From positions 1 to 64,000 of the forward strand of contig CANJIV010000004.1 of the NCBI GenBank assembly GCA_947474595.1: a DNA stretch of 64,000 bases, written 5' to 3'. This DNA comes from Solirubrobacterales bacterium (lineage in GTDB: Bacteria; Actinomycetota; Thermoleophilia; Solirubrobacterales; Solirubrobacteraceae). Of this stretch, positions 28,311 through 32,826 are shown in pieces (positions within the stretch are counted from its first letter, which is position 1; each line of letters begins with the position of its first letter). A model generated the notes under the pieces. That model saw only the letters and a program-made list of their open reading frames with translations, was not told the origin of the DNA and did not search any database. Both the position numbers and the translations under genes were made by a program.

Positions 28311-28497
28311 AAAAAAAACGGCCGTTGCTGACCTCCTAGGACCTAAGACGAGCGCGCCGATAAGCGACCGGCCGCGCAGTAGCTCTCACTCGAAATATCA
28401 CGCTCATAGCGGGAATTCAAGGGCCACTAACTCTCAAAAGGGGGGTGAACCGGCGCCCCCGTAGCCCTCTGCCACCTACATTGCGCGACCAGTCACG

Positions 28498-28510: not shown

Positions 28511-29887
28511 GTGAAGACAAGACGTCAGGCCAAGATGGCCGTCGCTCTGGCAGCACCACAAGTATTGCCCGACGCAACGCCCTTAGCCACCAACATATCT
28601 AGCGCTCGGCGCCACCCGCCCCTACTTTCCCAAGAGTGGGTGTTGGCCGCAATCGGAGAACATGCAGCGTCGCTGCTGAGGACCGCTCGGCGACACTCCC
28701 TCTGCAGCGATGACGCTCAAGATGCATACCAGCGAGCGATCGAAATCTTCCTGCGTCGCGCTCCCAGCTTAGAGCGAGCCACCGTCGTCGGATGGCTACA
28801 TACCGTCGTCAAGCACGAAGCTCACACGGTTCGCGACGAGCGCCAACGTCTCTTACATCGCAGCGCCGACGATCTAGACCTTCAAGAGGCAAGCGATCTG
28901 CCGACGGCCGACGAACAAGTCGATCGCCTCGATCGACTCTCTTACGCTGCCGAGGCATTGCAGAGAATAAAACCTGCGGAACTGCGGGCCTTAGTACTGA
29001 AGGCCGAAGGGCATAGTTACGCTGAGATCGAGGCTATTTCAGGGTGGTCATACACCAAAGTCAACCGCCTCTTAAGCGAGGGTCGCCGCCGCCTCCTTGA
29101 CCGCTACGCCGAGATCGAATCCGGCGCTGAATGTGCGCGCTGGTCGGCTGTTCTATCGGCGATGGCAGATGGTGAAGCATCTGCCAAAGAACTCATCGCG
29201 ATCCGCCCGCACCTGCGCAGCTGTCGCGGATGCCAATCTACGTTGCGGGTCTACAGAACGGCCCCGGCTGACGTACAGCTGCTGATTCCAGTTGCCGGGC
29301 TGGGCCTCTTGGCCGCTGCCCCGGCGCGCGGCGGCGGGCTGATCGGTCGTATCTACGAACTCGTCGCAGGTGGGTTCTACGAGCGGGCAACCCTTTCGGC
29401 GGCTAAGCTCCAGGCTGGGCTTGAAGCCGCATCGGCCGGCAAGGTAGCGGCCGTCGCCGCCACCGCAGTGGTCGTTGTAGGCGGCGGTGCGGCTGTTATC
29501 CAACAGGTACCCCCGCCCGCAAATCAATCCCCCGCGGCCCGCACTGCCGTCGCTAAAACAGCACCGGCCCAAGCGACTGTGGTTGGCAGCATCGAGGCCA
29601 ATAACTCGGCTGGACCGGTGGCTTCAGCAGCCGCGGCGCGCGCCAAGACAGTCGGGCCAGTCAAGGCATCGGCGGCCACCGTTAGCCCGGCCCAAGCCAG
29701 CGATCTGGCCGCCGCAACGGAGTTTGGCTTCGAGGGCACCAACGGTCATTCAAGCAGCCCGTCGGCAGCGACCTCGACCAAGGCCTCCAATCCGAAAGCC
29801 ACCTCGAAGCCGGCCTCTAGTCCAGCCAAAGCCTTGCCGTCTACCCGACCGTCATCGCCCGACGCTAGCGGCGAGTTTGGCCCCTGA
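28511..29887 (+). CDS. Sigma-70-family (ECF-like) factor fused to ZAS-like zinc segment and membrane anchor
   Basis: 458 residues from GTG 28511. The sigma region 2-like part (~42-113) has CSDDAQDAYQRAIEIFLRR and VGWLHTVVKHEAHTVRDE. Region 4 (~146-200) has LRALVLKAEGHSYAEIEAI and SYTKVNRLLSEGRRRL. Then C208 and H234-x3-C238-x2-C241 (PHLRSCRGC) match the zinc-binding anti-sigma (ZAS) pattern. A hydrophobic helix near 312-330 is followed by ~125 residues rich in Ala/Ser/Thr/Pro. Sigma and anti-sigma-like parts are in one chain tethered to the membrane. It is 19 bp upstream of a secreted protein, its likely operon partner. Confidence 0.8.
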   Translation: MKTRRQAKMAVALAAPQVLPDATPLATNISSARRHPPLLSQEWVLAAIGEHAASLLRTARRHSLCSDDAQDAYQRAIEIFLRRAPSLERATVVGWLHTVVKHEAHTVRDERQRLLHRSADDLDLQEASDLPTADEQVDRLDRLSYAAEALQRIKPAELRALVLKAEGHSYAEIEAISGWSYTKVNRLLSEGRRRLLDRYAEIESGAECARWSAVLSAMADGEASAKELIAIRPHLRSCRGCQSTLRVYRTAPADVQLLIPVAGLGLLAAAPARGGGLIGRIYELVAGGFYERATLSAAKLQAGLEAASAGKVAAVAATAVVVVGGGAAVIQQVPPPANQSPAARTAVAKTAPAQATVVGSIEANNSAGPVASAAAARAKTVGPVKASAATVSPAQASDLAAATEFGFEGTNGHSSSPSAATSTKASNPKATSKPASSPAKALPSTRPSSPDASGEFGP

Positions 29888-29906: not shown

Positions 29907-31187
29907 ATGTCGCGTCATTACTCACCACTCCTGCTTGCTCTACTGGCACTCGTCTGCTCAATAGCGACGCTGCCATCGACATCTGCCTTTGCTGGTAGCT
30001 ACACCGTAATCTCATGCGGTGGAGCGAGCCCTTCTACCAACAATGCGTGGGCGCCTGGCGCCAACCAATATATGTCGGCCTACACCAACTGTCCCCAGCA
30101 AGGCTCCGGCAACGAAGCCACGACTGGAATCGTCACGCGTAACGTTGTCACTCCCTCTGCCAGTGGCTCTAGAGCTGGTTGGCTCGCAGGAGCAAGCCAG
30201 ACCTTCACTGCTCCCGAGGGAACAGGCATCGGCCAGATCAACGCGACCACATCGCTGCGTCGTTATCCCTCTGGCTACTGGACGGTTGGTTTTGTCGGCT
30301 GGAGCGGAGATACGCTCGCAAACTTCTTTGGCGCATCTCTGCTGTGGGGAAACACTTCGGGAGATGGTGGTGGAGGTGCGTTTGAGTACAACGGCATCAA
30401 CGCGAACTTCAATGCCGGCGGGCGCACGCGCGTGCGCCTCGACACTCGCTGCGGGGACATCGCTGGCTGCCTAACCGACTGGCTAGCGATCGACTCCTCG
30501 ACCAACCGCTCCCACCAACGGGCCTACGCGACGATGACTAATGTCAGCGTCCAGGTGCTCGATAGCGTCCCTCCGTCGGTCACGGGTGGCGGCCCGGCAT
30601 GGGGCTCAGGCTGGCAGCGCGCAACCAAGACCGTCCACGTAGACGCCTGGGACTCAACCGGGATCAAAGCCGTCTCAGCGACACTCGACGGCATTCCGAT
30701 AGATACGCGCACCAGCACGTGCGACTTCACGCAGCGCGCACCCTGCCCCAACCGCTCCGACGACTTAGCTGTAGTAACCGCAGCAACCGCCGACGGGCCA
30801 CACTCGCTCGCAGTCAACGCACTAGATACCGCCAACAATGTGCGGTCCTCGGCAGTCACCATCTACACCGACAACAGCCCTCCCGGGCGTCCGACCGCGA
30901 TCGCTGTCGATGGCGGAGATGGATGGCGAGCGATGGACGAGTTCGCAGTTACGTGGAATAACCCCGGCGGGCAGGCTTCACCGATTGTGCGGGCAAACTA
31001 TGAACTCTGCTCGGTAGCTAATCCAGCCTCTTGTGAGCGTGGCTTTCAAGATGGCGTTGGGATATCGCGCCTGTCGAAGCTCGCAGTCACAGAGGTCGGT
31101 GCCTATACCGTCAGGATTACCCTCCAAGACGAAGCCGGGAACTCTCTCGATGCACAGGCATCAGATCCCTGTGACCCTGCGCTTTGA
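29907..31187 (+). CDS. Large secreted Ig-like protein, N-terminal part (ends at a frameshift)
   Basis: 426 residues as read. A signal peptide is clear: SRHYSPLLLALLALVCSIATL followed by STSAFA and the mature start GSYTVISCGG. A lectin/glucanase-like beta domain follows (WTVGFVGWSGDTLANFFGASL), then bacterial Ig-like segments (VSATLDGIPIDTRTSTCDF). The frame ends at TGA 31185-31187. The continuation SDPVTLRFDD is found in the +1 frame from 31171, so the natural product probably extends to 32826 (~972 residues). Probably co-transcribed with the sigma-factor gene. Function likely surface or adhesion-related (inference). Confidence 0.75.
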   Translation: MSRHYSPLLLALLALVCSIATLPSTSAFAGSYTVISCGGASPSTNNAWAPGANQYMSAYTNCPQQGSGNEATTGIVTRNVVTPSASGSRAGWLAGASQTFTAPEGTGIGQINATTSLRRYPSGYWTVGFVGWSGDTLANFFGASLLWGNTSGDGGGGAFEYNGINANFNAGGRTRVRLDTRCGDIAGCLTDWLAIDSSTNRSHQRAYATMTNVSVQVLDSVPPSVTGGGPAWGSGWQRATKTVHVDAWDSTGIKAVSATLDGIPIDTRTSTCDFTQRAPCPNRSDDLAVVTAATADGPHSLAVNALDTANNVRSSAVTIYTDNSPPGRPTAIAVDGGDGWRAMDEFAVTWNNPGGQASPIVRANYELCSVANPASCERGFQDGVGISRLSKLAVTEVGAYTVRITLQDEAGNSLDAQASDPCDPAL

Positions 31188-32826
31188 TGACACTATCCCC
31201 GCCGAGGCGGCCGTAGCAGAGCCGCAGGAGTGGCTTAACTCCGCAGATGCGGCCGCATTCGCAGTAACGGTCGCGCCCCAAACAGCAACTCCGGCTCCGC
31301 CATCGGGGATCGCTGGATACTCGATCACCACCGATGGAAGCACGCCCGACACAAGCATCGACCTGCCCGGGCCGACCCCACGGCTCACACCGCCTCGCCT
31401 CAGCGAAGGACTCACGACTGTGCGCGTCAGGGCGATCACCGGCGCCGCAGTAGCCGCAGATGAGATTGGATCGGCAACCATTCGGGTAGATAGACAAGCG
31501 CCATCTGTGGCTGTCGTCGACGGCCCAGATGCCAGCGTATGGCAACGCACGCCTGTAAAACTAGCCCTCAGCGGCACAGACCAAGAGGGACTATCCTCGC
31601 TCGAGGGCGAGCTACCCAGCCAGAAAGGGGGCTGGATCGCCTACGCCGTCGATGACGCGTCGCCGGTACAACAACGTGGCGCCACGGCCGACGTCACCGT
31701 CAGTGGTGACGGCGCTCACTCTGTCACTTACGCAGCGACCGACCGCGCCGGCAATATCTCAACCCAGCGCGTAGCAAACTTCCGCATCGACGCTACCCCT
31801 CCCGACACACTCGGGTTCGAGGCTCCCGATCCCGAGGATCCTCGCGAGATCTCGGCGATCGCAACCGACCTCACCTCAGGTATCGCTGACGGCGAGATCG
31901 AGATTCGTCTTGCCGGCACGCACATTTGGAAGCAGCTCGCGACGACTAGGGCCCACGGGCGTCTCCTCGCTCGTATCGATGACGATGGCCTAGCCAGAGG
32001 CATCTATCTACTGCGCGTGCGGGCCAGCGACGTCGCTGGCAACGAGAGAGTCACAGATCGACTGCTAAGTGGCAGCCACGCCGACGATGCCTTCGTTATC
32101 GACGTACCGATACGGCAGGAGAGTCGCCTAGTGGTGGACCTCCCCCGCCATCCAATCACCCGCCGCTCGTGCGAGGTCGTGATCGCAGAAGGACGAGCCG
32201 TTAACCGCTGCCGCTCGATCACAGTCGCCGCGCCTAAGTCAGGACCGGTAGAGCTTGCTTTCGGTGATCAAGGCGCACTGTCGGGCCAACTAATCACGAC
32301 CAGCGGCGCGCCACTCAGCGCGGCCACAGTAGTCATCTCAGCCACGAACGCCAATCAAGGTGCAGTCGAACAGCGGCTCGCCTCGGTTCGCACCGACGCC
32401 GCCGGCCGGTTCAAGTTCAGCGCACCAGCCGGGCCGTCACGGACGATCACTGTCCGCTACGGCGGCTCTGATATGACGGGGACGTCTGCAGCCAAGATCC
32501 GCATCACGGTGCCAGCCAAACTGGCACTTTCGGTTGACCGTCGATCGGTCAATAACGGTAGCTCCATCACCTTCAAGGGACGGTTGATCGGGCAGCAACT
32601 CCCACTTACCGGGAAGTTAGTAACTCTGCAGGCCTTTTATCGCGGTAAGTGGCGTGCCTTCGCAACCACCCGCGCCACAGCCGCCGGAAAGTTCACCTAC
32701 AGCTACCGCTTCGAAGCTACGCACGGACGAGTTACATACCGCTTTCGCGCCCAAGCCCAACCAGAGCCCAGCTACCCTTACGGACTAGGTAGCTCGCCAG
32801 AGGTTGCGGTCACCGTCACCGGCTGA
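31171..32826 (+). CDS. Large secreted Ig-like protein, C-terminal part (after the frameshift)
   Basis: About 551 residues continuing the protein of 29907 in the +1 frame. This frame alone could begin at GTG 31033, but its sequence is only protein-like from about 31171 (VTLRFDDTIPAEAAVA). It carries repeated Ig-like segments (HSVTYAATDRAGNISTQ, DVAGNERVTDRLLS), a carboxypeptidase-regulatory-like segment (LSGQLITTSGAPLSAATVVI, TDAAGRFKFSAPAGPSRTI) and a final beta domain (ALSVDRRSVNNGSSITFKGR). No signal peptide of its own, which supports it being the rest of the upstream product. Confidence 0.7.
   Translation: MTLRFDDTIPAEAAVAEPQEWLNSADAAAFAVTVAPQTATPAPPSGIAGYSITTDGSTPDTSIDLPGPTPRLTPPRLSEGLTTVRVRAITGAAVAADEIGSATIRVDRQAPSVAVVDGPDASVWQRTPVKLALSGTDQEGLSSLEGELPSQKGGWIAYAVDDASPVQQRGATADVTVSGDGAHSVTYAATDRAGNISTQRVANFRIDATPPDTLGFEAPDPEDPREISAIATDLTSGIADGEIEIRLAGTHIWKQLATTRAHGRLLARIDDDGLARGIYLLRVRASDVAGNERVTDRLLSGSHADDAFVIDVPIRQESRLVVDLPRHPITRRSCEVVIAEGRAVNRCRSITVAAPKSGPVELAFGDQGALSGQLITTSGAPLSAATVVISATNANQGAVEQRLASVRTDAAGRFKFSAPAGPSRTITVRYGGSDMTGTSAAKIRITVPAKLALSVDRRSVNNGSSITFKGRLIGQQLPLTGKLVTLQAFYRGKWRAFATTRATAAGKFTYSYRFEATHGRVTYRFRAQAQPEPSYPYGLGSSPEVAVTVTG

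What the first reader, a model, noticed from the sequence alone, without database searches (positions are those of the whole stretch)
28511..29887. Sigma factor, ZAS-like zinc finger and membrane anchor in one polypeptide
Regions 2 and 4 of an ECF-like sigma factor are followed by C...HxxxCxxC (residues 208, 234, 238, 241), a transmembrane helix (~312-330) and a ~125-residue Ala/Ser/Thr/Pro-rich outer tail. Sigma and anti-sigma modules are normally separate proteins. A tethered fusion would need proteolytic release or a conformational switch. The gene is 19 bp from a large secreted protein, suggesting a surface-sensing unit.
Basis: partly seen in the sequence, partly recalled or inferred. Interest (0 to 1): 0.6.

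Follow-up and report, generated by a model that had tools for sequence, protein, structure and literature searches.

The report
Membrane-tethered sigma factor with EFGP tail
This soil-type bacterium carries a transcription factor built in one piece with its own inhibitor and a membrane anchor; the fusion is a known kind, but its outer tail ends in a short conserved tag (EFGP) that recurs on unrelated membrane proteins encoded beside the same family of secreted proteins, which suggests an undescribed surface-docking signal.

Summary
P0001 (28511-29887) carries sigma-70 regions 2 and 4, a full zf-HC2 finger (C208-H234-C238-C241), one membrane helix (312-330) and a 126-residue Ala/Ser/Pro/Thr outer tail. 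The fusion alone is not new: ECF48, ECF52, ECF53 and IutY are tethered sigma/anti-sigma fusions. What is new lies in the tail. It ends in EFGP. Of 39 family tails, 31 carry EF within the last nine residues (shuffles: mean 0.35, maximum 5), and a family of another order of the class keeps EFGP although its sigma core is only 33-38% identical to the window's. The secreted gene 19 bp downstream belongs to a beta-sandwich/Ig-like family found in 34 of 41 related genomes. Of 51 partner genes found independently, 17 have an EF-tailed gene directly upstream, including single-helix proteins with no recognisable sigma domain. Best reading: a self-inhibited, membrane-tethered ECF sigma whose outer EF tag docks the secreted partner and which intramembrane proteolysis releases. 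Tethered fusion: well supported. EF-partner docking: inferred, about 50%. Release by proteolysis: by analogy only. Counter-evidence: the tag is equally common in sigma genes without an adjacent partner. New variant of a known kind.

The parts
28511..29887 (+). gene of the fused ECF sigma / zinc anti-sigma / membrane protein, P0001, 458 aa
28497..28501 (+). GGAGG ribosome-binding site before the GTG start
   Evidence: sequence
28658..28828 (+). sigma-70 region 2 (residues 50-106)
   Evidence: Pfam PF04542 E 5.1e-5; all 43 family members match
28949..29095 (+). sigma-70 region 4 (residues 147-195)
   Evidence: Pfam PF08281 E 3.6e-5; all 43 family members match
29132..29236 (+). zf-HC2 zinc anti-sigma domain (residues 208-242; C208, H234, C238, C241)
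   Evidence: Pfam PF13490 E 9.1e-6; the only zf-HC2 in the genome; invariant residues
29444..29500 (+). membrane helix (residues 312-330)
   Evidence: Kyte-Doolittle mean 2.35 over 19 residues; predicted helix at P0001 277-307, with low confidence from about 300 on, so the membrane segment itself is not modelled reliably
29507..29884 (+). outer Ala/Ser/Pro/Thr-rich tail (residues 333-458), predicted disordered
   Evidence: composition; pLDDT 37-56
29720..29734 (+). internal tail motif EFGFE (residues 404-408)
29873..29884 (+). C-terminal motif EFGP (residues 455-458)
   Evidence: the only gene of this genome found to end so (the second pattern match has no ORF)
29907..32826 (+). secreted partner gene: signal peptide, N-terminal beta-sandwich region, Big/Ig-like and carboxypeptidase-regulatory-like domains; frame broken once near 31166-31176
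29907..30716 (+). conserved N-terminal region of the partner family (alignment A2)
   Evidence: 34 of 41 related genomes; model of low confidence (pLDDT 62)
28401..28449 (+). diverged copy of a conserved upstream element (CGCTCATAGCG ... GGGGGGTGAA); relatives have CGCnnTTTGCG N17-20 GGGGGCGA
   Evidence: spacing in the window is about 10 longer than in relatives

Best explanation
P0001 is a membrane-tethered, self-inhibited ECF sigma factor. Step 1 (well supported): sigma regions 2 and 4 lie in the cytoplasm, covalently joined to a zinc anti-sigma domain and one membrane helix, so the tail is outside. Step 2 (inferred): the anti-sigma domain folds back on the sigma domains and keeps them off RNA polymerase. 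Step 3 (inferred from genetics): the flexible outer tail presents EF tags (EFGFE, EFGP) that dock the secreted beta-sandwich/Ig-like partner encoded by the next gene; the partner, alone or with its own surface ligand, is the sensed signal. Step 4 (by analogy with IutY): a change in docking exposes the tail to a first protease, a site-2 protease cuts the helix, the anti-sigma remnant is degraded, and free sigma directs transcription. The same tag and partner are also used by single-helix proteins with no recognisable sigma domain, so the tag works as a portable docking or display element and the sigma fusion is its signalling version. Rough odds: steps 1-2 0.85, step 3 0.5, step 4 0.6 given the rest.
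For: Domains, invariant Cys/His and helix. Foldseek puts the model nearer to E. coli sigmaE bound to RseA (1or7, rmsd 7.2 A over 177 columns) and AlgU-MucA (6.3-6.5 A) than to RNA polymerase-bound ECF sigmas (17-25 A); weak evidence. EF tag: 81 EF in 39 tails against 5.8 in shuffles (maximum 15); 31 of 39 have EF in the last nine residues against 0.35 (maximum 5). Third codon positions vary, so it is a protein-level signal. Six of eight sigma-fusion tails of family f5 (another order of the class) end EFGP or EFSP with core identity 33-38%. Partner pairing: 16 of 39 main-family genes have a secreted partner next door. Among partner genes found by profile without reference to the tag, 17 of 51 have an EF-tailed ORF directly upstream, against 2 of 947 background ORFs once the family's own 20 are set aside. 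Five or six of these 17 have no recognisable sigma domain (L129, L132, L139, L140, L170 and the truncated L166; HMM, and Pfam on four of them); four are small single-helix proteins beside rpsF-ssb-rpsR. Own genome: one zf-HC2 gene, one partner gene, two Peptidase_M50 genes.
Against: The EF tag is as frequent in main-family genes without an adjacent partner (19 of 23) as with one (12 of 16). G025, a one-contig genome, has an EF-tailed sigma and no detectable partner. Four f4 members have an adjacent partner but end GLAP or QAP instead. The tag is not strictly at the terminus (EFGFEGG, PEFGG) and has internal copies. No physical interaction was tested. Some divergent fusions lack the zinc ligands (L122, L131), so zinc is not essential to the architecture. 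The membrane segment is only moderately hydrophobic.
Confidence: 0.5

Rival explanations
1. The EF tag is a recognition site for an envelope protease or quality-control factor (a PDZ or C-terminal protease such as Prc), not for the secreted partner. The tag starts regulated proteolysis in every EF-tailed protein, and the partner is merely a target gene transcribed with the sigma.
For: The tag sits at or near the C-terminus, as PDZ and Prc substrates do; IutY is activated by Prc and RseP (PMC8999054); the tag is kept when no partner is adjacent; two S2P-type genes in the own genome.
Against: The tag often ends in Pro, Gly or Glu and can be followed by several residues, unlike typical PDZ C-termini; internal copies; EF-tailed proteins with no recognisable sigma domain still sit beside partner genes.
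Confidence: 0.25
2. The EF-rich tail is a structural anchor that holds the membrane protein, or the partner, to a cell-envelope polymer; it has no signalling role, and the sigma is controlled in the cytoplasm by zinc or redox at the anti-sigma domain (a conformational switch as in RsrA-type ZAS proteins).
For: Zinc ligands are conserved in most members; the low-complexity tail suits a wall-spanning spacer.
Against: A redox switch in the cytoplasm would not need a class-wide outer tag or a conserved secreted neighbour; zinc ligands are lost in some lineages that keep the tag and partner (L122, L131).
Confidence: 0.12
3. Ordinary ECF52-like fused sigma factor: the tail is passive, EF is an inherited remnant, and the neighbouring secreted gene is simply a regulon member.
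For: The architecture matches ECF52/53 up to the membrane helix (PMC8999054; PMC5826349).
Against: EF is kept while the rest of the tail is scrambled and the sigma core falls to about 35% identity; it is shared with proteins that have no recognisable sigma domain.
Confidence: 0.1

Closest known systems
ECF52 sigma factors (SCO4117 of Streptomyces coelicolor)
   Same: One polypeptide with ECF sigma, zf-HC2 finger, membrane segment and a proline-rich outer extension; Actinobacteria; release by proteolysis proposed (PMC5826349; PMC8999054).
   Different: ECF52 carries a carbohydrate-binding module at the outer end of the same chain. Here the tail has no domain; it ends in an EF tag, and a beta-sandwich protein is encoded separately next door.
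ECF48 and ECF53 sigma factors
   Same: C-terminal fusion with a zinc finger and one to two membrane helices (PMC8999054).
   Different: No EF tag or paired secreted protein is described in the review read; their group models could not be run here.
IutY (ECF243) of Pseudomonas putida
   Same: Sigma fused to a membrane anti-sigma domain; proven release by Prc and RseP (PMC8999054).
   Different: Proteobacterial, iron-starvation cell-surface signalling; no zinc finger or EF tail is mentioned in the review.
RsgI anti-sigma factors of Clostridium thermocellum
   Same: Single-pass protein couples outer substrate sensing to sigma control through RseP and ClpXP (PMC12203970 abstract).
   Different: A separate anti-sigma factor, not a sigma fusion.

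Membership tests
ECF sigma factor (sigma-70 regions 2 and 4 only) | Sigma70_r2 and Sigma70_r4_2, no regions 1 or 3 | tested here: met
   (TIGR02937 E 3.5e-8, below its cut-off); closest PDB sequences are SigE of M. tuberculosis
Zinc anti-sigma (ZAS, zf-HC2) domain | C...HxxxCxxC within a zf-HC2 match | tested here: met
   above gathering score; invariant residues
ECF52 | sigma, zinc finger, membrane helix, proline-rich extension | tested here: met
   (tail 13% Pro, mostly Ala/Ser)
ECF52 | carbohydrate-binding module at the outer end of the same chain | tested here: not met
   no significant domain in the tail in Pfam or NCBIfam; tail predicted disordered
ECF48 / ECF53 | match to the ECF group models of Casas-Pastor et al. 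| not testable with these tools
   group HMMs not available; architecture up to the membrane helix is compatible
Tethered sigma released by regulated intramembrane proteolysis (IutY-like) | release by site-1 and site-2 proteolysis | not testable with these tools
   two Peptidase_M50 genes exist in the genome; cleavage not shown
Tethered sigma released by regulated intramembrane proteolysis (IutY-like) | sigma and anti-sigma domains in one chain with a membrane helix | tested here: met

The most novel reading that the evidence does not exclude
EF[G/A]-type tags at the ends of disordered outer tails are a portable extracellular docking code of the class Thermoleophilia. Single-pass membrane proteins with unrelated cytoplasmic parts (several ECF sigma-anti-sigma lineages, small proteins with almost no cytoplasmic part, and proteins of conjugative elements) use it to capture secreted beta-sandwich/Ig-like partners, and the sigma versions turn the state of that surface complex into transcription.
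Probability: 0.4. Interest if true: 0.8.

Novelty: new variant of a known kind. Interest (0 to 1): 0.6.

Why it matters
If the EF tag docks the secreted partner, it is a short, testable extracellular binding motif that explains how a tethered sigma factor senses a separate surface protein, and how unrelated membrane proteins of a poorly studied soil class display the same secreted family. It also gives a sequence handle for annotating otherwise featureless Ala/Pro tails, and a natural two-gene contrast to ECF52, where the outer sensor is in the same chain.

Tried and rejected
(1) EFGP as a DNA or RNA element of the intergenic region: rejected; third codon positions vary, the distance to the next gene varies, and the tag is kept where no partner follows. 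(2) EFGP as chance or composition of the tail: rejected by shuffles and ORF background. (3) EFGP as a tag common in the proteome: the own genome has two pattern matches and only one is a gene end. (4) ECF52 membership: the defining outer carbohydrate-binding module is absent. (5) Partner N-terminal region as a known domain family: no significant Pfam or PDB sequence match; the AlphaFold model is weak (pLDDT 62) and Foldseek gives only sub-threshold beta-sandwich and carbohydrate-module hits (best E 3e-3), so 'CBM-like' is only a hint. (6) Rfam: nothing near the gene. (7) Sigma-70 promoter and terminator scan: no more than chance. (8) The upstream element as a sigma-specific promoter: it also precedes unrelated genes, so left open. 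(9) Literature on Thermoleophilia or Solirubrobacter ECF sigma factors: nothing relevant in the library.

Full report
OBSERVATION. The ORF at 28511-29887 starts with GTG after GGAGG and encodes 458 residues. Pfam finds zf-HC2 above its cut-off (208-242) and sigma regions 2 and 4 just below theirs. All 43 aligned relatives match regions 2 and 4, and 36 match zf-HC2. The four zinc ligands are invariant columns. One segment, 312-330, is hydrophobic enough to span the membrane (mean 2.35, no charge from 312 to 343). The tail has 126 residues, 79 of them Ala, Ser, Pro or Thr.

WHERE IT OCCURS. 36 of 41 related genomes have a match. Named relatives are nearly all Solirubrobacterales (Conexibacter, Solirubrobacter, Svornostia, Patulibacter). 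A profile search finds the family in 68 of 149 genomes of the class at E <= 1e-15, and only weakly and rarely outside it (21 of 296 genomes drawn from the phylum match at E <= 1e-12, 16 of them in the class). The window's own genome has one copy and no other zf-HC2 gene.

THE TAIL. In otherwise scrambled tails, 31 of 39 complete members have EF within the last nine residues, mostly EFGP, EFAP, EFGG or EFGFEGG; composition-preserving shuffles give 0.35 on average and 5 at most. In all there are 81 EF dipeptides against 5.8 expected. The codons use different third bases (GAG/GAA, TTC/TTT, GGC/GGA/GGT/GGG, CCC/CCA/CCG/CCT), so selection acts on the protein. Non-EF members show related endings (ELGLE, ELGIE, or GLAP in one family). 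In family f5, in another order of the class, the sigma core is 33-38% identical to the window's, yet six of eight tails end EFGP or EFSP, and in seven of the eight the next gene again encodes an exported protein.

THE PARTNER. The downstream gene encodes a secreted protein with an N-terminal beta-rich region containing three invariant cysteines, then Ig-like (Big_13) and carboxypeptidase-regulatory-like domains. A profile of the N-terminal region finds 1-11 copies in 34 of 41 genomes and one in the window's genome. The f5 partners match it by profile comparison only over the end of the region and the following Ig-like part (probability 94%), so they may or may not be the same family. The structure model has low confidence and fold matches are sub-threshold beta-sandwiches, including carbohydrate-binding modules.

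THE LINK. I fetched the DNA upstream of 57 partner genes that had been found by the partner profile alone (a few of them turned out to be the partners of main-family sigma genes); 51 gave an upstream ORF to score. In 17 of the 51 the gene directly upstream ends in the EF tag (one of them QFGFE). The background, ORFs of at least 150 codons in the window and the long loci, is 22 of 969, of which 20 are the family's own tails, leaving 2 of 947. Even with a generous 3% chance per locus the probability is 7e-14; relatedness of the loci is not corrected for. Most of the 17 upstream genes are sigma fusions, most of them divergent, two of which have lost the zinc ligands. Five or six have no recognisable sigma domain. 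L132, L139, L170 and L140 are about 140-170 residues, a short N-terminus, one helix and an Ala/Pro-rich tail ending EFGL or EFGFER, and they sit beside the conserved rpsF-ssb-rpsR genes (identified by eye) with no sigma gene seen in the fetched 2.4 kb. L129 is a 340-residue single-helix protein ending EFGYEC. L166 is truncated by its contig end. Two conjugative-element-like loci carry a sigma fusion ending EFGP or EFGQP, then a partner, then, 2-3 kb on, another single-helix EFGP protein next to a TcpC-like gene (TcpC assignment by eye). So the tag goes with the partner family and not only with sigma.

MECHANISM. Covalent tethering is shown by sequence; the cytoplasmic placing of sigma and ZAS follows from their known function. 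Self-inhibition is inferred from the anti-sigma domain, with weak support from the model, which lies closer to sigmaE bound to RseA (1or7, 7.2 A) than to polymerase-bound ECF sigmas (17-25 A). EF-partner docking is inferred from linkage. Release by proteolysis is by analogy with IutY (PMC8999054); two M50 proteases are present. Against docking: the tag is equally frequent with (12 of 16) and without (19 of 23) an adjacent partner, and G025 has the tag but no detectable partner. A tag-reading protease is therefore the main rival.

COMPARISON. The fusion itself is known (ECF48, ECF52, ECF53, IutY). ECF52 has its outer carbohydrate-binding module in the same chain. Here no outer domain exists and the candidate sensor is a separate gene. 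I therefore file it as a new variant of a known kind, not as an ECF52 member. I found no description of the EF tag in the papers searched, which is a limited search of open-licence papers.

SIDE RESULTS. Upstream of the sigma start, 15 of 39 relatives share CGC-N5-GCG N14-19 GGGG(G/C)CGA (shuffles 0-1). The element also occurs before a metallo-beta-lactamase-fold gene and a PafB/WYL-like gene (both assigned by eye), and the window has a diverged copy. In three genera (G007, G009, G017) the sigma gene is interrupted at or next to the TKVN codons of the recognition helix. The G007 insert has a large serine recombinase and a phage capsid gene, G017 has a serine recombinase at the junction, and the G009 locus has a relative of the G007 recombinase; the G007 enzyme is 29% identical to that of G017 and 37% to that of G009. 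The site looks like a repeated integration target, reminiscent of the skin element in Bacillus sigK (own knowledge); whether it is excised is unknown.

Noticed in passing
L240 2135-2704 and 11662-12579 (G007); L027 near 1912-1952 (G017); L058 near 2831 and L029 near 1507 (G009): The sigma gene is split at or next to the codons for TKVN in the recognition helix of region 4 by inserted elements with large serine recombinases (the G007 enzyme is 29-37% identical to the others; a phage capsid gene in G007). A repeated integration site inside a sigma gene, possibly a sigK-skin-like switch.
   Followed up: partly
window 31166-31176: The secreted partner gene is broken by one apparent extra base: the frame from 29907 stops at 31187 and the homologous protein continues in the +1 frame to 32826. 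Assembly error or real frameshift not decided.
   Followed up: partly
window 28401-28449; L016, L036, L046, L225, L231, L232, L236: Conserved upstream element CGCnnTTTGCG N17-20 GGGGGCGA before many sigma genes of the family, also before a metallo-beta-lactamase-fold gene (apparently including one in the window's genome, C7:94378) and a PafB/WYL-like gene; function unknown.
   Followed up: partly
L237 (G038) and L238 (G029): Conjugative-element-like loci carry a divergent sigma fusion ending EFGQP or EFGP, a secreted partner, and a second single-helix protein ending EFGP near a TcpC-like gene.
   Followed up: partly
L031 (G038), L215 (G032), L217 (G026), G115: In family f3 a related sigma appears unfused, ending right after region 4; in L031 an NTF2/SnoaL-like ORF follows.
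   Followed up: no
L133 (G011): A secreted subtilisin-like ORF lies upstream of a second partner gene, downstream of a sigma fusion ending EFRP and its own partner (assignment by eye).
   Followed up: no
L036, L058: Contigs of this Thermoleophilia-type gene are labelled Frankiaceae and Bifidobacterium breve in the public records; probably mislabelled metagenome bins.
   Followed up: no
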